From Pollenia angustigena (lineage: Eukaryota > Arthropoda > Insecta > Diptera > Polleniidae): a DNA stretch of 64,000 nt. Shown here one piece after another: positions 9,314-53,663 of the stretch (the stretch's first letter is position 1; each line of letters begins with the position of its first letter). The notes beneath the pieces are model-generated. The model made no database searches, was not told the origin of the DNA, and was given only the letters and a program-made list of their open reading frames with translations. The DNA is taken from positions 104,743,284-104,807,283 of the forward strand of contig OV884057.1 in assembly GCA_930367215.1 (NCBI GenBank), in the 5' to 3' direction. The position numbers were made by a program, and so were the translations under genes.

Positions 9314-9324
9314 CTGCCCTCCAC

Positions 9325-12036
9325 TTAAGCCTGTTCGTCCCGAATAGGCTCAGATTCTCCTTTTCCATAATGGGCTAGTCGTTCTAGATGTACCACTTTC
9401 ATTTTTGATCTTGGGCTCTTATATTTCTGGATCCGATACACCACGTCATTCAATTTCTTTATTACTTTATATGGGCCATCCCAATGAGTCTGCAGCTTTG
9501 GAGATAGTCCTTTCTTTCGTTGCGGATTAAAAAGTAAAACCAACTGGCCTTCTTTGAAGCCTCCCGAATTTGAAACTCCATTGTTTCTGGCTTTCATCTG
9601 GTCATTTGATGAATTAACACGCCTTCTTCTTAACTCGTTTTTCTGCTCTTGGGTAGAGTCATTATTATTCGCTGGTACGGATAGTTCACCAAAGTTGTAC
9701 TGCTGGACCGGAATTTTACTTTCTCCAATTAGACCACTGTCTGCAACGCACTGTGGGCATGTAATTACGCAATCAATCACGGCTTGCTTGCAACCGATCC
9801 AATAGTAGCTTGCTTTTAACTTCTTTATGGTTTTCGTAACGCTTAGATGCCCACCACCAGTACCTTCGTGGAATTTCTTCACAACTTCACATACTTTAGA
9901 AGTCGGTACTACAATAAGGTTTTTAACCGTTTTGCTATCAGTACTTTCCTATGTACGGTATAGGCAACCATTTATCATCCGCAGACTACTCCACTGCGCC
10001 CAATACGCTTTCATTAGTGGACCGTTCAATTTAATTTCTTCACGAGTCGGCCTTTCACCTTCTTTCTTAGCCATCATAATTTGCGCTAATAAGGGGTCAC
10101 TTTTCTGCGCCGTTGACCAGTCTTCGCTGGGTTCCACATCTAATAAGCGAATCTCATTTATGCGTTTCTTGTTTTTAGACTCTATACCGTGCTTGCTTTT
10201 ATGTTTACTGGGCCGTCTTGAATATGTGCTCGCTTTCCCACGTTTTTCATAGTTTCTTTGGGAGGATAATTTCTTATGATCACTAGTGACTAGCTGTCTT
10301 ACAAGGGCTTCACTTCCATTCCCAACGTTAAGGGGTACTTCTAGACCATACCAATTCATAATTTGTCGTCCCATGTCTAGACTAATGCCTTGACGAATCA
10401 TAAAATCTGCTCCAATTATGACCTCGTCCATAATTTCAGCCACAATAAACTCATCAAAAACTATCATATCGGCCATTCTTATTTCCACTCTTGCTTTGCC
10501 ATAGACAATAACAGGCTCTCCCGTAGCTGTTCGCAAGTTTACACCACTTAGCGGCTCGACAGCTCCCTTTATCAAATCAGCTCTTATAATGGAATGTCCT
10601 GCACCAGTGTCGATAGTCAAAATGCGGATTTCACCATTTATGTAACCACAGGTCGTAATATTTCTGTTACTCGTTTTCACTACTAAATTGATCGTAAGAT
10701 CTTCAGTTTCCTCTGCACTGCTAGCTCTTCTCAGCTTTAGCGGTGGCTCCCGTGATGATTGTTGACTTGCTCTTCGTTTGTTCCTTTGCGGCGAAGCAGA
10801 TCTCGATCGTTGTTTGGGTGCTTTGCAGTTTCGCTGAATGTGGCCAATCTTACCACAATTATAGCATTTTGCCTTGTTTTTACCTTGTTTCTCGCTCAAA
10901 GCTCGCAAAACTGCCTTCTTCATGCTTCTCATTTCCTTTAAAATATCTCTTCCTTCTTCAGCAGCAAAATCAAGTTTCCGCACCATATACGTTTGTGGCT
11001 TTGAAATTATCCTTGCGGTTTCTTGTGCTAGGGCAAATGATACCGTTTCTGCAAATGATGGCTTCTGTGATGCACATACCGCTAGTTTTACATCAGCATC
11101 CCGTATACCGTTTACAAATGCCTCGGTCTTAAAATGATCTAGCAATGGATGACTTTCACCTGGATAAGTAAGCTGCACCAAGCGCTCAATCTCTAATGCG
11201 AAATCCTGTAGCGTCTCGTTTGGCTTTTGTACTCTACCCCGTAATTCCATTCTGAATATTTCTTTTCTATGTTCACCACCATACTTGCGTTGCAGTGCTA
11301 CCATAATGTCATCATAATTATTTCTGCAACTTACTGGTACACTTTCTAGAATTTCAGCCGCAGTTCCTTTTAAAGCCAGAATCAGCTCTATGGCTTTTTC
11401 TTCATTGTTCCAAGCATTTTTATTGGCAACTGTGTCAAACTGGAACTTAAACACATTCAATGGTGAGCTGCCGTCAAAACTTGGAGCTCTTATTCTATTC
11501 GAGACTTCTGGAAAAACTCGCACCACTCCCTCTTGGCACTGAAGACTATTTACTTTTTCTTCCAAATGATGTAGTTTTCCATCAAAAACAGTGACTTGTG
11601 TTTTAACATCAAACAGCTTCTGGTTGAATTCTATCTCCATATCGTCTACTCTTTCATTTATAGCAGTAGAAATCTCTTGAAGCTTCTCAAGTTTTTCATT
11701 TGTCAATCTGGAATTTTGTTGAATTTCGGCTAAAATGGTGTTTGAGTTTTCTTCCATTTTTCTAGAATTTTTTTCCATTCTTCTAGAAGTTTCAGCCGAA
11801 TTTTCTTTTACCAATTTCTCCATATTTTCCTCCATTTTTCTAGAAGTTTCAGCCGAATTTTCTTTTACCATTTCCTCCATTTTTCTAGAAGTGTCTGCCG
11901 ACATTTTTTCCAGTTTCTCCATCATAGCAGCAAACATTGTACCAAGATCCAAGTTGCTTGTTACTGCACGGGTAGCAACTTCTATTTCTTCTTTTTCATC
12001 AAATTCATAAGCTGCGATGTCAATTAAGCGACGCAA
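9325..12036 (-). pseudogene. Gag-protease-integrase(zinc/C-term) fused ORF of mini-element
   Basis: One minus-strand frame runs from about 12036 to 9325, broken by a single in-frame TAG at 9949-9951 that replaces an expected Trp (context CLYRT*ESTD). Order: heptad-like repeats with three copies of an SAETSRKMEE-type unit (coiled coil, residues about 35-170), capsid (APSFDGSSPLNVFKFQFDTV), knuckle CYNCGKIGHIQRNC, SR-rich spacer, protease (LTIDTGAGHSII and VIIGADFM), then directly the pre-integrase linker, the H2C2 zinc domain (HEGTGGGHLSV ... CPQC), and the integrase C-terminal fold (LQTHWDGPYKVIKKL). Both internal deletions keep the frame. There is no ATG at 12036; translation should start upstream at 12143. 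Confidence 0.85.
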
Positions 12037-12143
12037 TATTCGATTAATCTCTTCTGCAGCTCAGCTTTATTTCCTGCAGTAGGCAGATCCAACTTGCCCA
12101 ACTCTTTCTTGAGCTGTTCAACTTTTAGCTCATCGAATTTCAT
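12037..12143 (-). pseudogene. SAP-like N-terminus of mini-element Gag (frameshifted)
   Basis: The first ATG after the leader (12143 on the minus strand) opens MKFDELKVEQLKKELGKLDL and continues GNKAELQKRLIEY, matching the SAP motif (helix-extension-helix, nucleic-acid binding) found at the N-terminus of many arthropod gypsy Gag proteins. The reading hits TAA in this frame, but shifting by one base continues into the long Gag frame. A single small indel near 12036 therefore separates start codon and body. Confidence 0.65.
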
Positions 12144-12184
12144 TGTTGTTTATTTATATTATTATTATTTTTTTTTTTTTTATT

Positions 12185-12207
12185 GCAATTTCACTTCTGA
12201 CACCAAT
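12185..12207 (-). other. primer binding site of Gag mini-element
   Basis: On the minus strand, TGGTGTCAGAAGTGAAATTG follows the 5' LTR after two bases, beginning with the TGG expected opposite a tRNA CCA end. Confidence 0.6.
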
Positions 12208-12638
12208 TGTTACGTTTTTCCTTTAATAAACGCGTTCGGTTTACTCTCTTTATAATAAACCGTTGAGTTCTTTTAATTGCAAATAAAAATAAGTACACAC
12301 ACTTATTCAACTTTACAAACTTTATTATTTTGTTCACAATTGTTAGTTACGAACAGAACCGTTTCACAAAACAAACTAAACTAATTTTACATGAGTCACC
12401 CCTTTTTATATTTCATAATTATTTCTAGATTTTTCCTGAACCTTCCCGTAAAAACTATTTATTATGTTCTATAACCATTTCTAGAAATTACTGGGAAATT
12501 TATATAGGAATTATTTTTAAAATAACAGTTGTGTTGAAAATTATACATGACAATTTTAAGTAACATAAAACTATAACTTACAAGATAACTTATAACTATA
12601 ACTATAAATAATTCTTAGATAATTTAACTTTCGTAACA
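12208..12638 (-). repeat. 5' LTR (minus sense) of Gag mini-element
   Basis: Second 431-bp LTR, near-identical to 8883-9313. Confidence 0.9.
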
Positions 12639-16859: not shown

Positions 16860-17572
16860 TTTTTATACGAGGATATAATCATCAGAAGATCCTGGCCAGA
16901 TGGTAGTGCCAGGAGTGCGAGACTTTAACACGCTTAAATTACCTCGATACACTTGTCCAAATTCCCTGCAGCACCGCAAAATTATTTCAATTACTTCGAA
17001 ACACTCTCGCAGTAACATAATTTGGATTGTTTCCTGTATATAAATTGCTCTCGACTTTTCGTTCCAGGTTCACCCTTAACGAGTAAAAGCGGGGATACAC
17101 AAAGAACACATGTTCCTCATCTTCAACGTCCGCAACACAATGTGAACAAAATGGGGAACTATCTAGGCCGAAGCGAAACAGATAGGATCGGAAACAAACA
17201 TGTTCATTCAAGAATAGGCCCAGGTAAAAATTTGGATGACCATACCGTCTGCCGTACCTTATTTCTATGTTGGGTATTAACGCATATGTCCACCTATCTA
17301 TTGTAGTTGATAACCATGTTATTTGTCATTTTGTAATACTACTTCCCCTTTCATCACAAATTTCGGTATCATTTGCCATTGCGCGCCGTTTTAAAACAAA
17401 CTTAATCTTCTGTCAAAATAAAAGAAAACCCTCTCAAATTCATTAAAAAAAAACATTTAATTATGTACGGAATTTGCGTTTCGCACTTCTCTTAAGCAAA
17501 TTAAAGTTTTATACTTAAGTTTGCTCATTTCAATATGGTTTGACACAAAAGATTCACATTATGGTTAGGCCT
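16860..17572 (-). pseudogene. R1-like LINE, C-terminal ORF2 segment
   Basis: The minus strand reads DRWTYALIPNIEIRYGRRYG, then FYLGLFLNEHVCFRSYLFRF and a CCHC-type cluster SPFCSHCVADVEDEEHVFF, then a run ending near SSDDYILV before a stop. This matches the C-terminal tail of R1-clade ORF2 proteins (RWT-LIP box, HGCFR box and zinc-binding motif). It is separated from the RT part at 29640-30056 by the BEL element, whose GGCCT target duplication lies at 17568-17572. Upstream codons around 17300-17560 are degraded. Confidence 0.75.
17568..17572. repeat. target site duplication of BEL element, left copy
   Basis: GGCCT, repeated at 29640-29644. Confidence 0.85.
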
Positions 17573-18392
17573 TGTTCAATATACATTGAACACTCTTTGT
17601 TTTTTTTCCTTTAATTAATGAATTTACTAAAAAACCTTTTCTATTGTTGTATCTATTTAAAGTTATTGACAATTTCTTTTTTTTCTTATTATATTGTCTT
17701 GGCCCTATTGGGCAATGAATTGAAACTTAATTGTAAATTAAACTGAATTGTAAATTGAAACTGAATTATAAATTGAAATTGAAACATAAATCAAAAATAA
17801 CGGTCAGTTCTTCAATTTCGACTACTAACTATTGTGAATTAATGTAAATCGAAAGGTAGTGATTGAAGACTGAGTTATTTATTGTAATTGAAAAAGTAAA
17901 ATTTAGTACTCATCAAGACCAGACTGTCAAGCCTGATTTGGGAGAGGAAAAAGTTAAATTAACACGCGGTTTAAGTCGTGTCAAAAGAAACTTCACTTCC
18001 CATTTAACGCTCCACAAGAGCAGACAGTTTTTCCTCTTCAATCGTTTTTTTTTAATAAGACTTAAATTTCTAAACCTAAACTTATATTTAAAGTAGTAAA
18101 TATATTTAATAAACACTATAATTAAAATTAAACCCGTGCATCCAATTCTTTTCCCTTAAAAGCAACTATTCCCCCAAGGTAAGGTAACCGCTGGAACTTG
18201 TTATAAGCTCTACCAGATACTCAAATATTGCTTTTCCACTTATTTTCTTCCTCCAAACCTCAACTAATTATAATTGCCATCGAGCTATTATAATTTGAGT
18301 TGCCGTCAGACCCTTTCCCCCTTTGTCCCATAAAAGGGAGAGAAGTCTGACAATTAAATAATTTAGGCTACCCTAAAGGCTGAAATTATTCA
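17573..18392 (+). repeat. 5' LTR of BEL element
   Basis: 820 bp; repeated at 28819-29639. The 5' end is an inverted repeat, TGTTCAATATACATTGAACA. Differences from the 3' copy are seen near 17848, 17939 and 18120-18135. Confidence 0.92.
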
Positions 18393-18410
18393 TGGTCCTT
18401 TCGATCCAGT
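18393..18410 (+). other. primer binding site of BEL element
   Basis: TGGTCCTTTCGATCCAGT follows the LTR with no gap and begins with TGG; the priming tRNA is not identified. Confidence 0.65.
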
Positions 18411-19462
18411 AGAAGTAATCCAGCAAAAGTGAAACAAAAAACAAACTGGTCACCCCAAAGTCAAGTGTTCAAAAGCTCGAACATAAACTCTCAATTCAAA
18501 CTTCAAAAAAAAAAAAAAACTAAAGCAGCAAAAACGTGAGCATGAGGTAAATCAACTCAACAGGTTCAGTACAAAAAAAGCAGCACAAGCGTGAGTACCA
18601 AAAATAAATAGTAATATAAAAGTGAAATTTCTTACTTTATTGGAGTGTGTAAAAAATAAATAAAAAACAACAAAAAGTGTGGTGTGAAAAGTGTAGGAAA
18701 AAGCCGGGAAAAAGATTAGGTAATTTAGTCGGCATATAGTCAAAGATCGAAGGAAAATTTTTAATAAAATAGATGTGAAGAAAAAAAAAATTTTGAAAAT
18801 AAAAAGAAAATGGCGCCATAAAAGTAAAATGTATGTGTATATAAAACATGCATAGAGAAAAAAGGTAAAAAAAAAAAAAAAAAAAAAGGAGAATCACAAA
18901 AATTGTCGCCATTTGCAAAAGAAAAAAATGAAAAAGGCGCCAAGATAAAATAATAGAAATCTATGCATATAGAAGAGTGAGTGTAAAAAAAAAAAAAAAA
19001 TCGGAAAGAGTGAAAAAAGGGGCATGTAAAATTTATATACAGTTACATTTACATTGTAACTGGAGTGAAAAATACTTCCAAATACACAATAGTGAAAGAA
19101 GGTGAAGAAGAAAAGAAGAATTGAAACAAGTTTTACCATAGGTACAGAGAAAGAGAAAGAAAAAGCAAAGAAAGCCAAAGAAAAATAAGAGAATTTAATA
19201 AAAAATTGTAAAAAACAAAAAAAAAAAAAATTTTTTTTCTAAAAAAGGGAACAGGTGCATATGTGGCGAATCCATTAAGATTGAAACAGAAGTTAAGGAA
19301 AAAAGAGAACCAGTGTCAAACGAAGTGGAGAAAAGGTATTTAAAATTTAAAATAATAAAAATCATCTTCTCTTACCATAAAAATCATCCCTCAAAACATG
19401 AAATAAAAACACACAAAAATCCTCAAATTTCATTTGCGCTCCTAATATAAAAAAGACTTAAC

Positions 19463-19740
19463 ACACACACACAAATAATCATTTACACTCTTTGGTTAAA
19501 TTAAAATTTTTTAAATTAAATGTTTTCAAATTGCGTTCTTGTGAACTAACAAGAGAGAAAAAATACTCTTACTTTTTAGATTGCAAATACACACACACAC
19601 ACACACACACACAAATAATCATTTACACTCTTTGGTTAAATTAAAATTTTTTTAAAATTAAATGGTTTCAAATTGCGTCTCGTGAGCTAACAAGAGGAGT
19701 AAAAGGAAAAATATACTCTTACTTGTTGGACTGCAAAGGC
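19463..19740 (+). repeat. leader repeat I: two ~130-bp units
   Basis: Each unit runs ACACACAAATAATCATTTAC...TTGGTTAAATTAAAATTTTT...CTCTTACTT.TT.GA.TGCAAA; copies begin about 19463 and 19592. An (AC)n run separates them. Confidence 0.75.
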
Positions 19741-19749
19741 TCGTGAGTT

Positions 19750-19985
19750 AAAGTAAAAGCTTTAATTTAGTTGCTCTTATAAATGCGAAAACACAAACAT
19801 AATGTTTATTGAACTCTTTCAATTAAAAAAATAACTTATTACGCTCTTGAAAAGCAACAAATTGGAATTATTAAAAGCTTTAATTTACTTGCTCTTATAA
19901 ATGCGAGAACACAAACATAATGCTTATTGAACTCTTTCAATTAAAAAATAAAACATTGCGCTCTTAAAAAGCAACAAATTGGAGA
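19750..19985 (+). repeat. leader repeat II: two ~120-bp units
   Basis: The unit AAAAGCTTTAATTTA.TTGCTC...GAACTCTTTCAATTAAAAAA...AAGCAACAAATTGGA is present at about 19755 and 19873. Confidence 0.75.
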
Positions 19986-20358
19986 AATTCTTAATTTGTT
20001 TGCTAAATTTAGCTATAGCCGGAATACTGTGCTGTAACTAAAAAGAAAAATACAGTCCACTACAAATTTTTACGAACACTTCGTAAAAGTAGGAAAATTT
20101 TGATAAATTTATTTTTCATAATTTATTGAATACATTAATATAACACTATATTACATCATATTAAACTATATTATTATATTCTATTGAATGCTCATTTTTT
20201 TTGAAATTAGGGTTGATTAGAGGGAGTAAAACCCCATTGTGAAAATTTTTTTGAGTATTTAAAATTTAATGGGAAAATTTGTATGTTATTAAGATGGAAC
20301 AAATTTTCCCAATTTATGAAAATTAAGTAAGCCCATTACTAAGTGCGTTAAGGGCGGT

Positions 20359-20925
20359 CGGATTATAAAAATTTTTAATAAATTTACTAAAGGGCAATTT
20401 CCCAAATTGCAATTTTAGTAGATTTCAAGTTCGTCCATCGGATTATAAAAATTTTTAATAAATTTACTAAAAGGCAATTTCCCAAATTGCAATTTTAGTA
20501 GATTTCAAGATCGTACATCGGATTATAAGAAAACTTTTAATAAATTTACTAAGGGGCAATTTCCCAAATTGCAATTTTAGTAGATTTCAAGTTCGTCAAT
20601 CTAATTAATAAAGAATTTTAATAAAGTTACTCAAAGGCAATTTCCCAAATTGCACTTTTGGTAGATTCAAGTGCGTTAATCGGATTAATAAAAAATTTTT
20701 TTTTTTATAAATTTACTAAATGCAGTTTCCCAAACTGCAATTTTAGTAAAATTTCAAGTGCGTAAATCGGATTACTAGAAAGAAAAAAAAGTTTTCTAGA
20801 GAAAGTTACTAAAAGCAATCCCCAATTGCAGTTTTAGTAAATTTCAAGTGCATGAACAACTTTAATAAAGAATAAGATAAATTTACATAAGGGCAATTCC
20901 CCCAATTGCTAGCTTAGTAAATTTA
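20359..20925 (+). repeat. leader repeat III: about seven ~80-bp units
   Basis: Unit core CGGATTATAAAAATTTTTAA, then AAATTTACTAAAGGGCAATT, then CAAATTGCAATTTTAGTAGA. Units start at 20359, 20439, 20519, about 20600, 20681, about 20768 and about 20850; the first two are exactly 80 bp and later ones are increasingly diverged. Each holds an inverted pair AATTTCCCAAATT / AATTTGGG-like. Confidence 0.85.
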
Positions 20926-21429
20926 TAAAAAAGAAAAAGTGCAAATAATATCGGAATACTCGAATGGGGAATTGAAAATAGTTTATAAGATTAATAGAGT
21001 TAAGCTTGCAAGTTGGAAGTCCCAGAGTGGGACTTCAAGGTTAAAAAAGGGTAAAAGGAAAAAGTGGAAAGTTGAATTGGGTTCAGAATTCAATTATTTC
21101 CATAGTAAACTTAAAATCACACTTCTATCAAATTACTTATGTATTATTATAATCAAATTTAATAAAATTAAAAAATTAATAAAAAAAAAATAAACATTAA
21201 GAGTTTAAATTTATCTCAAATTGAATTAGGCTAAATTGGAATGGGCGAGATAGTTGGGGATCTTAAATTTCCCAAAAATTTCTGTTAATATTTAATTTTC
21301 GGATTGAACTGAAATTTAAATTTCCCACTTGAGTGGAAAATTCTTGTTATTGAATTAAATGCAGTGGATGAAAATTTAAATTTGAGAATAAACAAAGAAG
21401 TTTATAGGCTTAAAAGGAAAACTCTTAAA

Positions 21430-21720
21430 ATCGAAAATTACAAATTCCAAATAGGTAAAATTCAATATTCGTAAAGAATATAAATCTTAAAATTACAATT
21501 CCCTCATATTAACAATTTAATATTCGTAAAAGAATATAAATCTTGAAATTACAGTTCCCTCTTAACAAAAAGTTAATATTCTTAAAAGAATAGTTCTTGA
21601 AAGTATAAATTCCCAAGTAAATGAAATTGAATTTTCTTAAAGAAATATCACTCTGAAAGTTATAAATCCCTTCTTAACTAAAATTTAACCTTTTTTAAAT
21701 GAAAATAATTCTTAAAAATT
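21430..21720 (+). repeat. leader repeat IV: four ~60-bp units
   Basis: Repeats of the type CAATATTCGTAAAGAATATAAATCTTAAAATTACAATTCCCT, beginning about 21440, 21515, 21575 and 21635, each with divergence. Confidence 0.65.
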
Positions 21721-22450
21721 TAAATAGCTTAATTTTCTCCGTAAATAGAAAACCCTACTAAAAACTTTAAAGCGATACAGTTCCCAAAAGTGGTAACTAA
21801 AATCTAATTTTCCACGTAAGATAGAAAAAGTTCTTGAATTTTGGTCAAATAAAATTTACTTTTCCAATTTTCATGTTTTTCATAAAATTCAAACTCCCCT
21901 TGTTAATATTTGAGAAAAAAGTTCATGAATACAAATGAAAATTGGGGATTTTGTTTAAGTAAAATTTACTTTTCAATTTTTTATATTTTAATAAAATTGT
22001 AACTTCCCTTGTTACTTTTTGAAATTGAATTAAAGTGGATCTATGATCTTAAATCCATAAGAAAAGTAATGAGAAAGTGATAACGGTTCGTATCATTTGA
22101 ACGTAAATGCAAATATAAACTTTAGGCATATACTTCCTGGGTACAATATTGTTTTAACTAATCTATAGTTACCCTACCCCCCTAAAATTACCCAGGAAAT
22201 TGTTGTTTTTTCTCTTGATTGAATAATAATATCGAGAAAAGGAAATCAATTACTAACTCGTTTCCAATAAAAGGCTTACTCGAACAGTGAGTCAAAGTTA
22301 CCCTTATGCCTAAAGGTGCAATTCATAACTAATATTTGCATTTATCATAGCACACCGTTAGTTACCGGTGATTCTCATTTGAACCGTGAAAGGGAGCATT
22401 TCGAAATTTACTTTACATTCTTTTATAAGTATCATCATTCGTTTATAATC

Positions 22451-25400
22451 ATGACGAACGTCACAGGAACCTCTGATTCGGCGTTTAACACCCTGTACAG
22501 GGAGCAATTTCTCTTTGACTGTGAGAATCTGCTACAGTTTGGTGAGACCTTAAATAGTACACTGCAGGAACATAATGAATCTACTCTAGAGTTGAAGTTA
22601 AAAGAGCTGGAATCGGAATGGGTGACGTTGAAGGATTCTTATAGAAAGGTTATGGTGGCTCCAGAGGCCTCAGTGGGGGCAGAATTCAAGACTCAGGCCA
22701 AAAGCGAGTTTGCCACTTGTTCAGAAATATACTACAATTGTTCCTCCCAAATTAATGAGATACTAAAGGTCAGCCGAATAGAGTCGTCGCCAAACCCAGC
22801 ATTCCAGTCAACGTCAAGATATGCCCACCCAGAACCTAACATAATGCCCAACACAATGGATAATTTTATAAAATTGCCGCCATGTGACACGGAGATCTTC
22901 AAAGGCAGTTACGAACAATGGCCCTCATTCAGAGACATGTTCACTGCAGTATACATAAACCACTCAAGATTATCTCCCGTAGTAAAACTTTATCATCTAC
23001 GAAACAAAACCAGAGGTGAGGCTGGAGCTATAGTAAAAAGATATACCCTCTCGCATGAAAATTTTGAGTTGGCTTGGAATGCACTGAAAATAAGATACGA
23101 AAATAAACGTGTACTGGTAGATAACCAAATAAAAATGCTTTTTGATATCCCAGCAGCGACCAAAGAAGATAGCGAGGCAATTCAAAGGATACAGTCTGCC
23201 GTCAATGACTCGCTGGCCACCCTCAGAACTCTTGGTGTTGAGGTAGACAGCTGGGACCCAATTCTTATAAGGTTGATATCTACAAAATTACCAGACACAA
23301 CTCTTGCGTTATGGGAGCAATCGCTTACGTCCCCCAGGGAGCTGCCAAAATGGAGCCAAATGTCACAGTTCTTGGTAGAGAGGTATGAGGCTGTCGAGCG
23401 GCTTAAGAGTATACGAAATTCTAAGGACTGTTTTACCCTATCGCACAAGTCACAGTCAGCCGTGCAGACGTATGTCTCTCAAGAATCTGTTAATTTGAAT
23501 TGCAAATTGTGCAAAGAAGACCACAGTTTAAGAAACTGCCCTAAGTTCCGCTCTTTCACTATACAGCAAAGAGTGGACTATGTATTTCAAAACAAGTTTT
23601 GCAATAATTGTTTGGGGACTTCACACCTCAAAGCAAATTGCAAAAGTAAATACACCTGTCTGGTCTGTAAGAAAACGCATCATACCCTGTTGCACATGAC
23701 TAAGGGAGCTCCGAGTATGTCTCAAGAGTCTCAAAGGATAGATAATTCGACTAAAGGAAACAATTCACTAAGTTCTGCCCCTAAAACGGTGCGAAAAGCT
23801 GAAGATGACCGCCAGACCGAACGGGCAACAACATCCTCACGGGTACAAGCCAATTGCTCTGCCGGGAGTGAAAGCATTTTATTGCGGACTGCATTGATGC
23901 AAATTGAGCACCAGGGAGAAAAATTTACAGTAAGAGCTCTTATTGACCCGGGGTCTCAACGTACCTTCTTAACGGAAAAGGTGAGAAGTCGTCTTCCGCT
24001 CCCGTATAAAAAATCTTACTACGAAATCGTGGGGATAGGTGGCCATAAACAATCTGCATCCAAAGAATGTGAGCTTACGCTGTACGCGAAAAGGACAGAC
24101 ACCAGAATAATTGTAAAGGCCATAGTGTTGCCGAAAGTTACTAAGCGACTCCCAACCTGTTCATTTCAGGCGCCCAGCTGCAATGAGTTGGATAGTTTAG
24201 ATTTAGCCGATCCCTCATTCAACAAATCAGCACAAATTGATTTGATTCTCGGCAATGATTACGAGAGGTTTATTAATCTGGAGGGGATTAAAAAGGATGT
24301 TTGCGGACAAGCGTCCGCTTATAATACCATATTTGGCTGGGTGCTAAGTGGTCCCATGCAGACCCAATTAGCTCATACGTTTACCACGTCTGTCACCCAA
24401 TCCGATACTAGTGAGCTTAGTGCCCTTTTGAAAAGGTTCTGGGAGGACGAAGAAATACCAACTGATCGACCGAAGTCGGTAGAAGAAGAAAATTGTGAGC
24501 GTATTTATAAAGAAACTACCACAAGATGTGAAGATGGTAAATTTATGGTAAGATTACCGTTCAAACTTGAATTCCCTGGTAAAATCCATCTTGGATCATC
24601 CCGTTTTACCGCCCTGGCACAGAATGCTAGAATGGAACAAACCCTTAATAAAAACCCCGAACTCAAGGCGCAATATAAGGCCGTGTTAGAAGAATACGTA
24701 ACGCTGGGGCACATGGAGGAAACAGCTTCTCAAGAAATTCAATATGATGGTAAATATGAATCCTTTTATTTACCCCATCATGCAGTGGTAAGGCCAGAAC
24801 ATAAAACGACAAAGGTAAGGGTGGTATTTAACGCCTCTAGAAAAACGAAGTCACAGGTAGCTCTGAATGACGTGCTTTACACTGGGCCAACGCTTCAGAA
24901 CGACTTAATAACAGTCATTCTGAATTGGAGAAAATATCGTTACGTTTTTAGTGGCGATATACAGAAAATGTACCGGCAGATTTGGGTTCATCCGGAGGAC
25001 AGAAGGTACCAAAGAATTGTGTTTCAAAATCAGGATGATGACCCAGTTAAGGATTACGAGCTGAAAACCGTAACTTTCGGCGTAAATTGTGCCCCGTACC
25101 TAGCCATTCGCACCCTGCTGCAATTGGCCTCTGAATGTGAAGTTACGTCCCCAGAAGCGGCGGCAATTCTTCGCGGCCAAACTTATCTTGACGACATATT
25201 AGCAGGAGGGTATACTATTGAAGAAACTCTTTCTACACTGAGACAACTAATCAGTGTGTTGAAGTCCGCTGGATTCCCTTTAAAAAAGATAACTGCTAAT
25301 ATTAATGATGTACTTTCTGATTTACCAGCCGAAGACTTATATGATTCCAATTTTCTTAGATTTCACGAGGCAAGTTCCACCAAGACCCTTGGAATTAAGT

Positions 25401-25474
25401 GGAATGCACTATCGGACGCATTCACTTACAGTTTTGAGCCTATGGAGATGTTCACAAGCTTAACAAAAAGGTAG
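22451..25474 (+). CDS. BEL/Pao Gag-protease-RT polyprotein, first open segment
   Basis: The start is the ATG at 22451 (MTNVTGTSDSAF); the frame is open further upstream but without ATG. Gag has an N-terminal DUF1759-type region with LPPCDTEIFKGSYEQWPSF. Three zinc knuckles follow at about 23500-23700: CKLCKEDHSLRNC, CNNCLGTSHLKANC, CLVCKKTHH. The protease has VRALIDPGSQRTFL. RT shows VRVVFNASRKTKSQ, SGDIQKMYRQI (first Asp), FGVNCAPYLAIR and YLDDI (catalytic Asp pair). The segment ends in TAG at 25472-25474 after TSLTKR; the same frame resumes immediately with LSSVAKLFDPAGW, so this is one nonsense codon at the RT/RNase H junction. Otherwise it looks intact. Confidence 0.92.
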   Translation: MTNVTGTSDSAFNTLYREQFLFDCENLLQFGETLNSTLQEHNESTLELKLKELESEWVTLKDSYRKVMVAPEASVGAEFKTQAKSEFATCSEIYYNCSSQINEILKVSRIESSPNPAFQSTSRYAHPEPNIMPNTMDNFIKLPPCDTEIFKGSYEQWPSFRDMFTAVYINHSRLSPVVKLYHLRNKTRGEAGAIVKRYTLSHENFELAWNALKIRYENKRVLVDNQIKMLFDIPAATKEDSEAIQRIQSAVNDSLATLRTLGVEVDSWDPILIRLISTKLPDTTLALWEQSLTSPRELPKWSQMSQFLVERYEAVERLKSIRNSKDCFTLSHKSQSAVQTYVSQESVNLNCKLCKEDHSLRNCPKFRSFTIQQRVDYVFQNKFCNNCLGTSHLKANCKSKYTCLVCKKTHHTLLHMTKGAPSMSQESQRIDNSTKGNNSLSSAPKTVRKAEDDRQTERATTSSRVQANCSAGSESILLRTALMQIEHQGEKFTVRALIDPGSQRTFLTEKVRSRLPLPYKKSYYEIVGIGGHKQSASKECELTLYAKRTDTRIIVKAIVLPKVTKRLPTCSFQAPSCNELDSLDLADPSFNKSAQIDLILGNDYERFINLEGIKKDVCGQASAYNTIFGWVLSGPMQTQLAHTFTTSVTQSDTSELSALLKRFWEDEEIPTDRPKSVEEENCERIYKETTTRCEDGKFMVRLPFKLEFPGKIHLGSSRFTALAQNARMEQTLNKNPELKAQYKAVLEEYVTLGHMEETASQEIQYDGKYESFYLPHHAVVRPEHKTTKVRVVFNASRKTKSQVALNDVLYTGPTLQNDLITVILNWRKYRYVFSGDIQKMYRQIWVHPEDRRYQRIVFQNQDDDPVKDYELKTVTFGVNCAPYLAIRTLLQLASECEVTSPEAAAILRGQTYLDDILAGGYTIEETLSTLRQLISVLKSAGFPLKKITANINDVLSDLPAEDLYDSNFLRFHEASSTKTLGIKWNALSDAFTYSFEPMEMFTSLTKR

Positions 25475-26020
25475 ATTTTGTCATCAGTGGCAAAACTGTT
25501 TGATCCTGCCGGATGGCTTACACCCATAGTCATCCGGGCAAAAATACTTATGCAGCGACTGTGGTTAGAGGGGTTGGATTGGGATGAGGAAATTTCAGCA
25601 GAATCCATGCAGAACTGGAAGGAGTTGGTAGCAGATCTCTCAAAAATTGAAGAAATTTCAATTAGTAGATGGATTCAATACACCCCCGAGGACGAGGTGC
25701 AGATTCATGGGTTCTGTGATGCGTCAAAGTCAGCATACTGTGCCACAATACATATTCGCTGCCAAACTGGGTCCCACAACACATTTTCAAATTTATTGCT
25801 GGCAAAGTCGAGAGTGGCCCCTATACAAACGGTTTGTTTACCCCGTTTAGAACTGAACGGTGCGGTTTTATTAGCAAACCTGATAAAGTATGTTCAGAAC
25901 GCACTTAATTTCAATAATTGTGAAACGTTTTTATGGACGGATTCATCCATAGTGCTGGACTGGCTCTCGAAACCACCGTCAACATGGGAGACCTACGTGG
26001 CAAACAGATACACCAATTAG
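25475..26020 (+). pseudogene. BEL/Pao RNase H segment
   Basis: Continues the gag-pol frame after the TAG. It contains VAKLFDPAGWLTPIVIRAKI (the usual RT-RNase H connection in BEL/Pao), GFCDASKSAYCATIHI (catalytic Asp), PRLELNGAVLLANL and FLWTDSSIVLDWLS. It ends WETYVANRYTN then TAG. The correct continuation lies one frame over from about 26010 (VPGATWRHVPTHTNPADL), indicating a single-base-type frameshift near 26008. Confidence 0.88.
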
Positions 26021-27744
26021 TTCCCGGCGCAACATGGCGGCATGTGCCAACTCATACAAACCCCGCAGACCTAGGTACACGTGGCTGCAAGTCGCAGGAG
26101 CTGGTAAATCACCTGCAGTGGTGGTACGGACCTCCATGGTTGCATAAACCCATGTCAGAATGGCCCAAGCGAAAGCCTTTGCAAGCAAATGAAACCCCAG
26201 TTGAGGTCCATACGCTGTGTGCGGAGGTTCAACAAGATGATGATATTCTTAACAGATTTTCATCATACACAAAGGCGCTTCGGGTGATGGTGTATGTGTT
26301 CAAATTTTATGACAGAATCGCGGCCAAACTCAGGCCGGATATACCCCCAAGCAAGAGTGAAATAACTCTAAAGGAAATGAACCAGGTTAAGGTGAGGTTA
26401 ATTGTCTGGGCTCAAAAGGCAATGTTTTATGAAGAGTACCAATGTTTGCTAAAATCGCAGCCAATAGCAAAAAAAAGTGCTTTAAAAACCTTAAATCCAT
26501 TTCTCGATTCAAATTCTATTATGAGGGTAAATGGCAGACTGGCTCAATCGTCTCTGCCCTACAATGAAAAATATCCCATAATACTGCCAGGCAACTCCCG
26601 TTTTTGCCATCTATATCTAACACATCTGCATGAGTTTCTCTATCATGCAGAAATAAGCCAAATGTGCAGAATGGTACAAACTGAATATTATCTTTTTCGA
26701 CTCAAACCCCGAGTGAAAAAGGTAATACGTCATTGCAAAACTTGCATAATTTACAAACAGCAATCATGTTTTCAATTAATGGCACCTTTACCTCCAGAAA
26801 GGTGCAATTTATCTTTACCTTTTCAGGTCACCGGTATAGATTTTGCCGGCCCATTTGAAATCAAGTCGTCCAACTTACGCACTGGAGCAGTAGTAAAAGG
26901 GTATGTGGCGGTATTTGTGTGCTTCAGCACGAAGGCGGTTCATTTAGAACCGTGCTCAGAGTTGACGACTGCAGCCTTTCGTGCTGCCTTTGCCCGTTTC
27001 GTTGGGAGGCGAGGACTACCCCAACGGGTAGTAACGGATAACGGGAAAAATTTCCTGGGGGCAAGTCGAGAGCTGGAAAATGACTTTGGCGTGTTTGGGA
27101 AGACGGTAGCACAGGATATTGCCCAGAAATATATCGCTCAGGGATTCGAATGGAGATTCATCCCGCCGTACGCGCCTCATATGGGAGGCTTATGGGAGGC
27201 TGCCGTGAAAAGTTTCAAATTTCATTTGAAGCGAGTGACCGGTAGCAGGAGGCTAAATTTTGAAGAGCTTGCCACCATTCTGGCTCGAATTGAAGGGGTA
27301 CTAAACTCACGGCCTATCTCGGCCTTATCGGAAGATCCATCTGACCTCGCCGCATTGACTCCGGGTCACTTTTTGCGAGGAGCGCCTTTAATGGCTCTAC
27401 CTGAGCAAGACTTCCAAAGCATGTCAGTGGTAAACAGATGGGAAGAAGTAAAGGCAATGCATCATCGATTCGCGGTGAGATGGAAGGATGAGTACCTAAG
27501 GGCTTTGCAAAGACGGTATAAATGGAAGGACTCGGGGCCTAACATACAGGTGGGAGATCTAGTGGTAGTCATGGATGATTTGCTACCACCGAGTGAATGG
27601 CGATTGGGCAGAATTGAACACACTTACCTCGGTTCGGATCAAAATGTGCGTACGGCGGACGTGCGGATTGCCACAGGGGTAATTACACGCCCGATCGTGA
27701 AATTATGCTACCTTCCCTTGTTGAAAAAGGAAGATACTGTTTGA
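26005..27744 (+). pseudogene. BEL/Pao integrase and C-terminal domain
   Basis: Frame +1 relative to the preceding segment. After WRHVPTHTNPADLGTRG comes an H2C2 zinc domain (HLHEFLYHAEISQM ... CKTCIIYK), and a core with TGIDFAGPF, VVTDNGKNFLG and GLWEAAVKSFKFH supplying the D, D and E. A DUF5641-like tail follows (RWEEVKAMHHRFAVRWKDEY, VGDLVVVMDDLLPP, EWRLGRIEHTY). All three catalytic residues are present. The start codon assigned by eye is meaningless because this is the 3' part of Pol. Confidence 0.9.
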
Positions 27745-27999
27745 GACAGATTTGTACGAAATTCTAGTAACATCATTTATAACCATATCAAATTCACCCA
27801 ATGTTATTTACTCTTACTAATTTACACATATTACTTGTTATACTAATCCCGCACACTAAACTCATAAACACTTACCTCCAGCCACTCTAATTCCCCTCTA
27901 ATCAACATCTAATTTTAGGCGACGCCTTCACTTTACTTATCCATTTTCATTATGAATTTACCCATTACTAACTAAATTGTCTTTTGCTATTTTCTATAG
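27745..27999 (+). other. intron-like segment with branch point and splice acceptor
   Basis: After the pol stop, the sequence is C/T-rich and stop-laden. TACTAAC at 27966-27972 is a perfect branch-point consensus, followed by a pyrimidine tract (CTTTTGCTATTTTCTATAG) ending in AG at 27998-27999. This is exactly at the beginning of the open part of the 3' ORF. A matching donor was not pinned down. Confidence 0.6.
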
Positions 28000-28789
28000 T
28001 CATAGGTCAAATCGGCGTCTTACTGCTACCAGGGTGGTACGAAGCCGCAGTCCAAGCCGCCATCCAAGCCATACCACAAGCCATGGTTCAAGCCGTAGCC
28101 CAAGCCGTGGGTCGGCGAGAGATGAAGGTCAACTAAGGGACCTAGAAGTTTTATATTGCGTGTTGTGTCGTGGTTATCACGGCCTAAGATTTTGTCGTCG
28201 ATTTAAGCGCATGCCGGTAGAGAGGAGGAGGGAGGTGGTGTCGGGTTTAGGCTATTGCTTTAACTGCTTAGCACGAAGCCATTCCCAGAACTACTGCACG
28301 TCAGAGGAGGCCTGCAGACGGTGTGATCAACCGCATCACACCATGCTTCACATCCCCTCTCGCCAGGAGCAGAGGGAGAGGTTAGCGGTAGTCCGGGCCA
28401 CAGCTAGGACTCGGCAGCCGCAGGTCCACACTCACCCGTCACCACCCCGACAGCACCAACGTCAACGGCAACCACGTCAACCGCACCAACATCAACAACA
28501 CCAACATCAACAACACCAACGTCAACAGCACCAACGTCAACAGCACCAACGTCAGCCAAGGCCACAACGTCGGCCAAGGCCGCAACGTCAGCCGAGGCCA
28601 CAACGTCAGCCAAGGCCACAACGTCAGTCGAGGCCACAACGCCAGCAGCATCAGCCACCAGCAGCAGCAACAACGACCGTGCCGCAGCCAGCACAACAAA
28701 CAACTACCTCAACGGCCACTGGCCCAAACACGAGGGTAATTTTAGAGGCCATTAAGTCGCTGGCGCAAGTTCTATGTGTAGATGAGTAG
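28000..28789 (+). CDS. BEL extra 3' ORF: RS-rich protein with nucleocapsid-like zinc knuckles
   Basis: The open frame has no ATG before the conserved domain (the first in-frame Met is inside it), so expression by splicing onto an upstream start is likely. The N-terminus has RSRSPSRHPS-type Arg/Ser repeats. The middle carries CVLCRGYHGLRFC, CFNCLARSHSQNYC and CRRCDQPHHTMLH, the same spacing and order as the three knuckles of this element's own Gag, and the linker RRFKRMPVERRREVVS is parallel to KFRSFTIQQRVDYV. The C-terminal half is a His/Gln/Pro/Arg minisatellite (28440-28640), then a hydrophobic tail AIKSLAQVLCVDE. It occupies the position of env in other elements but is not an envelope. Probably an RNA-binding accessory protein (inference). 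Confidence 0.7.
28440..28650 (+). repeat. coding minisatellite in 3' ORF
   Basis: Short units of CAACGTCAACAGCACCAA type, then GGCCACAACGTCAGCCAA type, encode QHQQHQRQ and RPQRQP repeats in frame. Confidence 0.8.
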
Positions 28790-28806
28790 CCCAGCAGTTT
28801 TGGTTC

Positions 28807-28818
28807 GAGGCCGGAGCA
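28807..28818 (+). other. polypurine tract of BEL element
   Basis: GAGGCCGGAGCA precedes the 3' LTR. It is short and interrupted, so moderate support. Confidence 0.45.
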
Positions 28819-29639
28819 TGTTCAATATACATTGAACACTCTTTGTTTTTTTTTCCTTTAATTAATGAATTTACTAAAAAACCTTTTCTATTGTTGTATC
28901 TATTTAAAGTTATTGACAATTTCTTTTTTTTCTTATTATATTGTCTTGGCCCTATTGGGCAATGAATTGAAACTTAATTGTAAATTAAACTGAATTGTAA
29001 ATTGAAACTGAATTATAAATTGAAATTGAAACATAAATCAAAAATAACGGTCAGTTCTTCAATTTCGACTACTAACTATTGTGAATTAATGAAAATCGAA
29101 AGGTAGTGATTGAAGACTGAGTTATTTATTGTAATTGAAAAAGTAAAATTTAGTACTCATCAAGACCAGACTGTCAAGCCTGGCTTGGGAGAGGAAAAAG
29201 TTAAATTAACACGCGGTTTAAGTCGTGTCAAAAGAAACTTCACTTCCCATTTAACGCTCCACAAGAGCAGACAGTTTTTCCTCTTCAATCGTTTTTTTTT
29301 AATAAGACTTAAATTTCTAAACCTAAACTTATATTTAAAGTAGTAAATATATTTAATAAACACTATAATTGAAATTAAGCCCGTGCATCCAATTCTTTTC
29401 CCTTAAAAGCAACTATTCCCCCAAGGTAAGGTAACCGCTGGAACTTGTTATAAGCTCTACCAGATACTCAAATATTGCTTTTCCACTTATTTTCTTCCTC
29501 CAAACCTCAACTAATTATAATTGCCATCGAGCTATTATAATTTGAGTTGCCGTCAGACCCTTTCCCCCTTTGTCCCATAAAAGGGAGAGAAGTCTGACAA
29601 TTAAATAATTTAGGCTACCCTAAAGGCTGAAATTATTCA
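28819..29639 (+). repeat. 3' LTR of BEL element
   Basis: Direct copy of 17573-18392; followed by GGCCT. Confidence 0.92.
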
Positions 29640-30056
29640 GGCCTTTAGCCTTTCTTGCCAATATATCAATTGGGATCATAGCTGAAATGACCAATGCTGC
29701 TTTGTCAGATACAGTCCTATATGTAGAACATACTCGAACTGCCGCAAGTCTGTGGACAGAACTGATTTTCCTGATGTAGGACTTAAGACTTGTAGACTCA
29801 GCCCATATTGGAGCTGCATAAAGAATAACACTCTTGACAATACTAGCCAACACTTTTCTTCTCAAATATTTGGGACTCTTTGTATTTGACATTATGGGAA
29901 CCAGTACAGTACATATATAAATAACTTTATCTCTCACATAATCAAGGTTATGTTTAAACGATAGCCTATTATCTATTATAGAACCCAGGTACTTAAGAAA
30001 ATCTTTAGTTTTCAAATCGCAGTTTCTAATTTTGAATTTTATATACTCTACATCAC
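29640..30056 (-). pseudogene. R1-like LINE, RT thumb segment
   Basis: Minus-strand reading: VEYIKFKIRNC, then KYLGSIIDNRLSFKHNLDYV, YLRRKVLASIVKSVILYAAP and IWAESTS, SVHRLAAVRVCSTYRTVSDK. This is the conserved region downstream of the RT catalytic site in R1-clade ORF2. It is cut at 29640 by the BEL element and continues at 17572. On its 5' side it is broken at 30056 by non-homologous sequence. Confidence 0.85.
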
Positions 30057-30699
30057 TTTATTTTATTTAAATTTTCCAATTTCAAATATTTTTACACACT
30101 TTGGCATTTCATTACTGTAAACCCGCGCCATATTTAATTTTTAATGTCACTATCGCTTCATTTTCAGAAAATTTTGCGAAAGTGATAGGGAGTACCAAGT
30201 TAGCATTTAGACAACCAATAATTTATTGCCAAATCCAAGCGAAACGTCAACGAAAGTAATAAATTATAAAACTAAAGCAGTGAAGTCCAAAAAACTTTAA
30301 AACAACAAAATATGTATAACAATTGTGTTTTATTTATAGTCATCATATAAATTATGCATTCTTCATTTAAATTCTTTCTATTTTTATTAAAATAGTAGTA
30401 TACCAACACACTTTAAATTTAAAATATCAATATTATATGCATATAGTATTTCTCGCAACAATTTCAAATGTGACTTATTTTTACAGTTCTTGCGAGAAAC
30501 TTTTCGCAAAATATTGTTACAGTAACACTTTTTCTCTCATCCTTCCAATAATTGCTGGTAAATTTTTTTAAGGACAGATAATTTTCGCAAAATAATGATA
30601 CTGAAACACTTGTGTGAGAAAAACCATTTTTTGTTTCACTTTACACTGTTTTTGTTGCAATTCACTCGTTTTATGCGAAAAATTTTACGATGCGAGAAA
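30057..30699. mobile_element. insertion in the R1-like LINE, non-coding
   Basis: AT-rich sequence between two parts of the same LINE ORF where the catalytic YxDD region should be; part of RT is therefore deleted or replaced. It has an internal inverted pair TTTCTCGCAA (30449) and TTGCGAGAAA (30490) and several TTTTCGCAAAAT motifs. Terminal repeats and target duplication were not resolved. Confidence 0.4.
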
Positions 30700-31743: not shown

Positions 31744-32135
31744 TTAATTAAGAGGTAAATCAACTTCGAAGACGTACGCATCATTACTGAGGATTGCTTC
31801 GCGCTTATCAGATTTCTTCACGTAACCGACGACCCAAGCTAACTGTTTATTGTTGGACATACTTTTAAACTCTTCACAAAATTGATAGGAATAGTCTGAC
31901 GGCATAGATATTAGAAGCCCACCTGATGTCTCTACAGATTTTCCTGCACGTAGCATTACATCTTGATTCAGCATCCCTCCAAAGGATAAAATATTTTTAA
32001 AGACTGGTAATTTGTCTATTGTAAATTGAAGGCAGTCCCTTTGAAACTCCGCTAAATTTTCTGCGTGGCCTAATAAGCCAAATCCAGTGACATCTGTTGC
32101 TGCATTTGCTTTGAATTTCTTCATTAACTGAGCCG
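31744..32135 (-). CDS. selD: selenophosphate synthetase, last coding exon
   Basis: Minus-strand exon beginning at 32135, preceded by a good acceptor (TTTCTTTTTAG). It encodes AAQLMKKFKANAATDVTGFG, then LLGHAENLAEF, KLPVFKNI, GKSVETSGGLLISMP and a VVGYV..-type C-terminus, stopping at TAA 31744-31746. These are the conserved DVTGFGLLGHA and ETSGGLL motifs of selenide, water dikinase, which makes selenophosphate from selenide and ATP. Translation across the junction with the exon at 32335-32528 gives an uninterrupted, family-like sequence. The Sec/Cys/Arg active-site exon is not in view, so SPS1 versus SPS2 type cannot be decided. Confidence 0.88.
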
Positions 32136-32334
32136 CTAAAAAGAAATATTAATACATATTATATTTTTTGTTATTACAAGGATAAATACAGCAACAACAA
32201 CTTTAGTTATGATTTCTGAATATGCGCCTGTGTAATTACGTGATTAATTTTTTTATAGTTTAAGTTTATAGTATACCGAGGTAATAAAAGAATAAATAAA
32301 ATTTGTTTCCATATCTTTGAACATTTTACCTTAC
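32136..32334 (-). other. selD intron (199 bp)
   Basis: GT donor (G|GTAAGG on the minus strand at 32334) and AG acceptor at 32136-32137. Splicing joins KN and AAQLM in frame. Confidence 0.85.
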
Positions 32335-46922: not shown

Positions 46923-47159
46923 CCATCGCCCTTAAGAGGAATCGTACAATTTCTTCAAAAACTTTGAAATTGGATGATTACTACAAATATAAGTGTATGC
47001 ATACTGTCTGGTTGGTTACATAAAAAAAAATTTATTTCTTTTTGTTTTGTTTTTTTTTTTTTTTTTTTTTTGAAAGTCATTAACACTACAATTTTATATA
47101 CTATTTTTTTTTTTTTTTGTATTAATTTTAGATATTATGTATTATATAATTAATTTTGC
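46923..47159 (-). other. 3' untranslated region and polypurine tract of 412-like element
   Basis: Minus strand ends CCTCTTAAGGGCGATGG directly before the 3' LTR (46923-46940). Two long A-runs (minus sense) occur at 47050-47070 and 47105-47120. Confidence 0.6.
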
Positions 47160-53659: not shown

Positions 53660-53663
53660 CTCT

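What the first reader, a model, noticed from the sequence alone, without database searches (positions are those of the whole stretch)
28000..28789. BEL/Pao element with an extra 3' ORF that duplicates the Gag nucleocapsid and appears to be spliced
Behind pol, where env would be, lies an ORF with Arg/Ser repeats and three zinc knuckles whose spacing and order copy this element's own Gag (CX2CX3HX4C, CX2CX4HX4C, CX2CX3HH). It has no ATG before the domain, but a perfect TACTAAC branch point (27966), pyrimidine tract and AG (27999) sit exactly at its open start. This suggests a spliced, SR-like RNA-binding accessory protein, not an envelope. Possible roles: nuclear RNA export, splicing control of its own RNA, or packaging.
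Basis: partly seen in the sequence, partly recalled or inferred. Interest (0 to 1): 0.8.

Follow-up and report, generated by a model that had tools for sequence, protein, structure and literature searches.

The report
Spliced RNA-binding gene in fly retrotransposon
A fly retrotransposon carries, where an envelope gene would be, an extra gene for a zinc-finger protein of RNA-binding type that has relatives in blowflies and fruit flies and is probably made from a spliced message, which suggests that the element regulates the fate of its own RNA.

Summary
A complete BEL/Pao element (17573-29639; target duplication GGCCT; LTRs 99% identical) has a 262-codon exon (28000-28789) behind pol, without an in-frame ATG before its three Gag-type zinc knuckles. 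TACTAAC (27966), a pyrimidine tract and AG (27998-27999) stand exactly at its start.

It has relatives: of 57 proteins collected, 55 are ORF3-type by sequence and two are Gags. Named sources are blowflies and tephritids. Typical architecture: variable N-terminus, three knuckles, basic linker, short amphipathic tail helix. In the four blowfly-type relatives that reach that far, similarity begins at or just after the exon start.

Before seeing it, I had noted a leader donor, ATGAG|GTAAAT (ATG 18542), giving MS|HRSNRR; relative P0041 begins MSHRSNRR. Higher-scoring donors exist, and no RNA was examined.

The knuckles resemble the own Gag (35%) but are no recent copy; RS repeats are not conserved; no transmembrane segment was found.

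Best reading: an old, spliced RNA-binding accessory protein acting on export or packaging of the element's RNA, functionally nearest to CERV of Cer1. The role is inferred.

The parts
17573..18392 (+). 5' LTR (820 bp), preceded by target-site copy GGCCT 17568-17572
   Evidence: LTR pair 99.0% identical over 830 columns; ends TG...CA and TSD
18393..18546 (+). Start of internal region (primer-binding-site position) and proposed 3' part of leader exon 1, ending ATGAG
   Evidence: the only other ATG in 17845-18541 (count) is the LTR/internal junction ATG at 18392, a 6-codon frame (read)
18542..18544 (+). Proposed ORF3 start codon at the very end of exon 1 (ATGAG|GTAAAT)
   Evidence: predicted product MS|HRSNRR equals the N-terminus of P0041
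18547..27999 (+). Proposed intron of the ORF3 mRNA (9453 nt, spans most of the leader and all of gag-pol)
   Evidence: donor (11th of the 45 listed by score), acceptor; inferred, no RNA evidence
22451..25471 (+). Gag and first part of Pol (DUF1759, three knuckles, protease, RT); ends at an in-frame stop 25472-25474 in this copy
25924..27744 (+). Frame holding the rest of Pol (integrase, DUF5641), shifted against the preceding piece
27966..27972 (+). TACTAAC branch-point-like heptamer
27973..27999 (+). Pyrimidine tract and acceptor AG (TTTTCTATAG)
   Evidence: rank 4 of 740 AGs by an approximate matrix
28000..28789 (+). ORF3 coding exon including stop 28787-28789; base 28000 is the third base of the split Ser codon
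28157..28351 (+). Three zinc knuckles of ORF3 (first Cys to last His)
   Evidence: homologous to own Gag knuckles within 23495-23740
28412..28720 (+). Basic, Arg/Gln/His/Pro-rich linker, largely 15- and 18-nt repeats; mostly modelled with low confidence, with one helix (residues 164-182) at about 61-74
28724..28777 (+). C-terminal amphipathic helix (residues 242-259 of the exon)
   Evidence: pLDDT about 79-86; motif in 6 of 7 blowfly-type hits
28818..29639 (+). 3' LTR (822 bp), followed by target-site copy GGCCT 29640-29644

Best explanation
ORF3 is a conserved accessory gene of a BEL/Pao lineage. It is translated from a singly spliced RNA in which a leader exon ending in ATGAG (18542-18546) is joined to the exon at 28000, giving M-S-H-R-S-N-R-R... 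The product is a small, very basic protein (pI about 11.8) with three Gag-type zinc knuckles, a basic low-complexity linker and a C-terminal amphipathic helix. Shown: the exon, its homologues, the conserved boundary, the architecture, no membrane segment by hydropathy. Strongly inferred: splicing. Inferred: this particular donor. Inferred only: it binds the element's own RNA through the knuckles and basic linker, self-associates or contacts a partner through the C-terminal helix, and governs the fate of unspliced genomic RNA (nuclear export first, packaging second), a CERV- or Rev-like job.
For: Family: 56 proteins in one profile search, plus P0003, 57 in all; 55 are ORF3-type by sequence and 2 are Gags (P0054, P0055). 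Tail motif in 6 of 7 blowfly-type (not P0001) and 45 of 48 tephritid-type proteins by regular expression (misses P0032, P0040, P0044). Boundary: SNRRLTATRV is kept in the window, Lucilia cuprina and L. sericata, and SNKRLTATRV in P0001, right after the acceptor. Donor: MS|HRSNRR was listed and noted before P0041 (MSHRSNRR...) appeared; start codons end in G, so an unspliced copy would need a GAG acceptor, which is rare (recalled). ATGAGGTRA occurs once in the 4058-nt leader; 3.3% of 2000 Markov sequences have one anywhere, 0.25% within the first 300 nt. Precedent: fly errantivirus env exons are spliced to a short peptide exon, an AU dinucleotide or from within gag (PMC12992720, passages read); Cer1's spliced CERV is required for genomic RNA export (PMC10309623, abstract, passages and section 15 read). 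Structure: knuckle 1 plus the following helix at pLDDT about 87-93, tail helix 79-86.
Against: No RNA was seen. P0041 also has Trp in place of the last Cys of knuckle 1. Of the 45 donors listed, 13 have an in-frame ATG; 18547 is 11th overall and 5th of these 13 by score (23016, 24788, 26901 and 24548 in gag-pol score higher), and 18179 in the LTR is stronger but has no ATG. ATGs are scarce in the proposed 5' UTR (1 against 5.7 expected, 2.4% as low) but also in the proposed intron (36 against 51, 1.4% as low), so this does not single out exon 1. A BEL pol is seen upstream only in this window; no DNA of relatives was found. P0001 lacks the tail motif; three models (P0003, P0048, P0052) begin after knuckle 1 and three (P0037, P0056, P0057) lack the third knuckle. 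NES-like patterns differ in class between blowfly and tephritid tails and are absent in P0017. No solved structure matches well; both models are of low overall confidence.
Confidence: 0.55

Rival explanations
1. ORF3 is a second nucleocapsid that works in the cytoplasm with Gag: an RNA chaperone or packaging helper that enters particles through its C-terminal helix, with no role in export. (This overlaps with the second half of the best explanation; the confidences are not exclusive.)
For: Same three-knuckle module as Gag; basic linker and a helix fit a chaperone and assembly partner. No nuclear localisation was or could be tested.
Against: A separate spliced mRNA would give a protein independent of Gag stoichiometry; Gag already carries the module. 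Neither point is decisive.
Confidence: 0.25
2. ORF3 suppresses host defence (small-RNA silencing or RNA decay) by coating element RNA.
For: Changeable N-terminus and linker among relatives and a basic RNA-binding type of protein.
Against: No similarity to anything beyond zinc knuckles was found in Pfam, PHROGs or PDB; low-complexity parts drift fast in any case.
Confidence: 0.12
3. ORF3 is a decaying remnant or a Gag fragment captured by chance, without function.
For: This copy's pol is broken; some relatives are truncated or miss a part (P0001, P0032, P0037, P0044, P0056).
Against: Stop-free frame with intact knuckles and tail helix in this copy; the same architecture in tephritid-type and blowfly-type proteins; the exon start is kept while the neighbouring upstream stretch is not.
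Confidence: 0.04
4. The exon is real but is translated without splicing, by internal entry at the conserved Met after knuckle 1 (as in the Calliphora gene models) or from a non-AUG codon.
For: P0003, P0048 and P0052 are modelled from that Met, which is invariant in the 8-row blowfly-type alignment.
Against: Residues before that Met, back to the exon start, are alike between window, P0001 and Lucilia; P0041 starts MSHRSNRR. Gene models are not protein data.
Confidence: 0.1
5. It is a divergent envelope or infectivity protein of the element.
For: Position between pol and the 3' LTR, and the probably spliced organisation, are those of env.
Against: No transmembrane window (best 0.90); family is knuckles plus basic linker. 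Signal peptides were not tested.
Confidence: 0.01

Closest known systems
CERV of Cer1 (C. elegans LTR retrotransposon; Ty3/gypsy type is recalled), PMC10309623
   Same: Accessory protein of an LTR retrotransposon made from a spliced mRNA, with a Cys-rich part that might be a C4 zinc finger; required for export of unspliced genomic RNA.
   Different: CERV is large, with predicted H, M and G domains and five exons, and its N-terminal half shares peptides with Gag; ORF3 is about 264 aa with Gag-type knuckles and one main exon. Another superfamily. No export role shown for ORF3.
Spliced env of Drosophila errantiviruses, PMC12992720
   Same: 3' exon behind pol, joined to a short upstream exon (short peptide exon in ZAM and Beagle subclades, an AU dinucleotide in springer).
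   Different: Encodes a membrane fusion glycoprotein; ORF3 has no membrane segment and is a knuckle protein.
HIV-1 Rev (as described in PMC10309623, section 15)
   Same: A protein that multimerises on unspliced RNA and couples it to export: the job proposed for ORF3.
   Different: No comparison with Rev was made; export signal of ORF3 is only a recalled pattern match in some members.
BEL/Pao Gag nucleocapsid knuckles
   Same: Same three knuckle spacings, 35% identity over 82 residues to the element's own Gag.
   Different: No capsid (DUF1759) or protease found; own N-terminus, linker and tail helix; closer to other ORF3s than to this Gag.
sORF1/sORF2 of MDG1-group elements, PMC11952523 (passages read)
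   Same: Accessory ORFs of fly LTR retrotransposons.
   Different: They lie upstream of gag, sORF2 is compared with small fusogenic membrane (FAST) proteins, and those transcripts showed no evidence of splicing.

Membership tests
BEL/Pao LTR retrotransposon | Pao-type domains (Peptidase_A17, DUF1759, DUF5641) between LTRs | tested here: met
   (A17 E 5.5e-49, DUF1759 5.5e-31, DUF5641 2.4e-29)
BEL/Pao LTR retrotransposon | Direct LTRs TG...CA with short target-site duplication | tested here: met
ORF3 family defined here | Three knuckles plus C-terminal amphipathic helix outside a Gag polyprotein | tested here: met
   not every one of the 55 members is complete (see evidence against)
ORF3 family defined here | Location behind a BEL/Pao pol in the relatives | not testable with these tools
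   No DNA of relatives found; the genome search did not complete
Envelope protein | Transmembrane segment | tested here: not met
   best 19-residue hydropathy 0.90, in the tail helix
SR protein | RRM plus conserved RS domain | tested here: not met
   no RRM in Pfam scans; RS repeats only in window and P0001
CERV/Rev-type RNA export factor | Made from a spliced RNA | tested here: inconclusive
   acceptor and donor in sequence, P0041 N-terminus; no reads
CERV/Rev-type RNA export factor | Nuclear, binds unspliced element RNA, needed for its export | not testable with these tools
   needs experiments
CERV/Rev-type RNA export factor | Leucine-rich export signal | tested here: inconclusive
   six recalled patterns on six tails: class 1d in window, P0041, P0048; class 3 in the two tephritid tails; none in P0017
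CERV proper | Large protein with H, M and G domains | tested here: not met
   ORF3 exon is 262 codons; model shows knuckles, helices and low-confidence linkers only. No direct comparison with CERV was run.

The most novel reading that the evidence does not exclude
A BEL/Pao lineage of higher flies has carried, since before blowflies and tephritids separated, a spliced regulatory protein built from a duplicated nucleocapsid module that switches its RNA between splicing and genome export or packaging, possibly with gag-pol and ORF3 both starting at the same leader ATG (18542) through alternative acceptors (exons at 22288 and 28000, same phase).
Probability: 0.3. Interest if true: 0.8.

Novelty: new variant of a known kind. 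Interest (0 to 1): 0.62.

Why it matters
Retroelements that splice their RNA must still export the unspliced genome. CERV of Cer1 is the one retrotransposon-encoded protein for this job that my searches turned up. A conserved, spliced knuckle protein in BEL/Pao elements would extend the idea to a second superfamily and suggest an origin for such regulators: reuse of Gag's own RNA-binding module. Its members are now named by accident in blowflies and fruit flies ('hormone receptor 4-like', 'sex-determining region Y protein-like', 'salivary glue protein Sgs-3-like'), so it also corrects gene catalogues.

Tried and rejected
Rejected: envelope (no membrane segment). Rejected: read-through from pol (the stretch 27745-27999 has stops in all three frames, and ORF3 lies in a different frame from pol). 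Rejected as unproven: recent self-copy of Gag (36% to own Gag). The knuckle tree separates Gags from ORF3s only at 95/78 with long branches and 3 Gags, the blowfly type is not one clade in the best tree, and tests do not reject ORF3 with own Gag (p 0.13) nor the blowfly group with own Gag (p 0.079), so origin stays open. The tree used 30 of 58 knuckle segments chosen by me; 3 of 59 proteins (P0037, P0056, P0057) gave no segment and one segment (second of P0042) is spurious.

Led nowhere: five scans of viral contigs and two of bacterial/archaeal genomes for DNA of relatives; PDB by sequence (best E 0.27, a nucleocapsid protein) and by fold (best E 5.8, HIV-1 nucleocapsid); PHROGs. Pfam: nothing above its cut-off for the window's ORF3; 3 of 35 family members match zf-CCHC_3 at E up to 0.1, best 3.5e-4. 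Nine literature searches gave no description of an extra knuckle ORF in BEL/Pao in the listings shown; searches matched over ten thousand papers, of which only 15 and 20 were listed, and this library lacks most subscription papers. The BEL/Pao survey PMC3118150 was read by passages only: it mentions env in few elements and no other third ORF in those passages. ATG scarcity does not separate proposed exon and intron. The gag acceptor at 22287 scores poorly (rank 160 of 740), so the shared-ATG idea is only suggested, by the 60 open codons before the gag ATG (0.9% of 5000 shuffles) and by equal phase. Donor, acceptor and export-signal patterns, the hydropathy limit and the TATA/Inr motifs are approximations from memory.

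Full report
What is there. The window carries a complete BEL/Pao insertion at 17573-29639, 12.07 kb: target-site copies GGCCT on both sides, LTRs of 820 and 822 bp that are 99.0% identical (5 mismatches, 3 gap openings over 830 columns), a 4-kb AT-rich leader with tandem repeats, gag-pol from ATG 22451 (DUF1759, three knuckles, protease-like, RT, Pao peptidase A17, integrase, DUF5641), and, in the place of env, the ORF named in the finding. In this copy pol has an in-frame stop at 25472-25474 and a frame change between the pieces ending at 26020 and beginning at 25924, so the copy itself should not make a full Pol. I searched the pieces apart and mended nothing.

Check of the observation. The frame is open from 27956 to the stop at 28787-28789. 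With an approximate acceptor matrix (from memory) the AG ranks 4 of 740 in the element and is the only one of the top 37 with TACTAAC in range. Length by chance: 0 of 2000 shuffles of 27745-28817 reach 277 codons; 8 of 2000 shuffles of the exon's own composition reach 260 or more.

Relatives. A single-sequence search gave 4 hits, a region search 1, and a profile search with E up to 10 gave 56 (only the 7988 candidates sharing most words were scored, and the profile was built partly from earlier hits). P0003 comes only, so 57 proteins were collected. Two are Gags (P0054 with DUF1759; P0055 judged by eye from a protease-like part). The other 55 are ORF3-type by sequence: 7 blowfly-type (P0001, P0003, P0017, P0029, P0041, P0048, P0052; P0001 and P0041 have no named species) and 48 tephritid-type. 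Not all are complete: P0003, P0048 and P0052 are modelled from after knuckle 1; P0037, P0056 and P0057 lack the third knuckle; P0041 has Trp for the last Cys of knuckle 1; P0057 is fused to an endonuclease-type stretch; P0002 holds two knuckle arrays. Named sources are Lucilia cuprina, L. sericata, Calliphora vicina, Bactrocera (oleae, dorsalis, tryoni, neohumeralis, latifrons), Zeugodacus cucurbitae and Eurosta solidaginis; P0014 and the Logan rows bear no species. No row is named as Drosophila; this is not proof of absence there. Many rows stand for several near-identical sequences (P0012 for 28, P0050 for 26), as expected for a repeated element.

Architecture. Blowfly type: SNRRLTATRV-like start (window, P0001, P0017, P0029; P0041 keeps only SHRSNRR), variable middle, knuckles, H/Q/R-rich linker, tail EAIKSLAxVLC. 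Tephritid type: own ATG (MDVDM...PTPTxRSA), knuckles, R/P-rich linker, tail GLSxVVATLQQLQRLLG. By regular expression the blowfly tail is in 6 of 7 (P0001 lacks it) and the tephritid tail in 45 of 48 (misses P0032, P0040, P0044; P0040 is a near miss by eye). Models: window ORF3 with 35 sequences, mean pLDDT 61 and pTM 0.34, knuckle 1 and the following helix about 87-93, tail helix 242-259 about 79-86; tephritid P0022 with 10 sequences, mean 56 and pTM 0.28, knuckle-1 region about 78-83, tail helix 191-204 about 66-68. Both are low-confidence overall. RS repeats are seen only in the window and P0001 among the blowfly-type rows with an N-terminus.

Splicing. The exon begins with the third base of a codon. 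One search ranked donors with a recalled matrix and printed the joined start for each; of the 45 listed, 13 have an in-frame ATG. Donor 18547, ATGAG|GTAAAT, is 11th overall, 5th of the 13, and the best of the three that lie in the leader (18547, 18977, 19682). It gives MS|HRSNRR and was noted. P0041, seen later, begins MSHRSNRR. Its second residue is expected from any donor ending in AG, so the independent information is the Met right before it. Since start codons end in G, an unspliced genomic reading would need G at the third last base before the exon, which acceptors avoid (recalled). ATGAGGTRA occurs once in the leader; 3.3% of 2000 Markov sequences have one, 0.25% in the first 300 nt. From a TATA/Inr-like pair at 17767/17804 (recalled motifs) the only ATGs before 18542 are 17842 (a stop follows at once) and 18392 (6 codons). 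Lucilia models read ...LYG|SNRR and ...LLMG|SNRR, which would fit a junction six bases further on in the same phase; this is conjecture. Of eight tephritid-type proteins that reach at least ten residues upstream of a recognisable MD/ME start, five (P0004, P0005, P0006, P0012, P0031; not P0023, P0053, P0057) have a stretch rich in Phe, Leu, Ile or Ser and a Gln, with two residues between it and the Met, as a pyrimidine tract and CAG would read (by eye). A stronger donor, 18179 in the LTR, has no ATG, and four ATG-bearing donors in gag-pol score higher. No RNA was examined.

Possible leader intron. Another TACTAAC lies at 22251, followed by AACAG (ending 22287); the gag frame is open for 60 codons upstream of its ATG (0.9% of 5000 shuffles), and base 22288 is again a third codon base, so the same ATG 18542 could start gag as well. 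The leader between holds 36 ATGs, a hindrance to scanning, though fewer than the 51 expected from shuffles (1.4% as low). The acceptor itself scores poorly (rank 160 of 740). I keep this as a suggestion.

Origin. Knuckle identities of window ORF3: 86% P0001, 75% P0048 (51 columns), 65% P0017, 50% P0041, 46% for the best tephritid-type, 44% P0055 (Gag), 39% P0054 (Gag), 36% own Gag. So the module is of BEL Gag type, but not a recent copy of this one. The tree is too short and has too few Gags to date it.

How it likely works. A small, strongly basic protein (pI 11.8, 47 Arg in 262) with nucleic-acid-binding type knuckles and a likely protein-contact helix, probably from its own spliced mRNA, best fits a regulator of the element's RNA. 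CERV of Cer1 is the nearest precedent: a spliced, Cys-containing protein required for export of unspliced RNA (PMC10309623). Fly errantiviruses show the splice layout with a tiny upstream exon (PMC12992720). Export is my first choice (about 0.4), packaging or chaperone second (0.25), counter-defence third (0.12). None of these roles has been tested; the confidences given for rivals overlap and are not exclusive.

Novelty. Nine literature searches showed no description of such a gene in BEL/Pao in their listings. It is a new variant of a known kind: an accessory gene of an LTR element, with a new content for this superfamily.

Noticed in passing
window 25472-25474 and about 25924-26020: Pol of this young copy (LTRs 99% identical) is broken by an in-frame stop and a frame change.
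   Followed up: no
window 22251-22450: TACTAAC, possible acceptor (AG ending 22287) and 60 open codons before the gag ATG in the same phase as ORF3's exon: possible leader intron with a start codon shared by gag-pol and ORF3.
   Followed up: partly
window 19754-21592: Leader tandem repeats: 118-bp x2 (19754-19983), about 80-bp x5 (20358-20774), 56-bp x3 (21434-21592).
   Followed up: no
window 46333-53660 (-): Young LTR element, Ty3/gypsy type by domain order (recalled): repeat pair of 591 bp 100% identical, open overlapping frames of 430 aa (gag-like with knuckles, by eye; no Pfam hit) and 1254 aa (protease, RT, RNase H, integrase).
   Followed up: partly
window 8843-12638 (-): Repeat pair 97% identical (about 470 bp) around a 703-aa frame with a zf-CCHC and a protease-like part: probably a damaged LTR element.
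   Followed up: no
window 544-4051: Repeat pair (about 284 bp, 96%) around an integrase-type frame 2181-3746 (+), likely another LTR element (labels by eye).
   Followed up: no
window 61290-62136: Tandem array with period about 153 bp, copies about 82-84% alike.
   Followed up: no
window 31744-32148 (-): AIRS_C domain (Pfam, E 2.2e-11); looks like a host selenophosphate-synthetase-type gene (name recalled).
   Followed up: no
window 16987-17325 (-) and 29620-30057 (-): Frames that look like parts of a LINE-type element on either side of the BEL insertion (by eye; Pfam found nothing in 29620-30057; joined flanks): the BEL element may have landed in an older decayed LINE.
   Followed up: partly
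P0002 and P0057 (Bactrocera oleae proteins): P0002 carries two ORF3 knuckle arrays in one protein; P0057 joins an endonuclease-type stretch to an ORF3-type end: fusions or gene-model artefacts.
   Followed up: no
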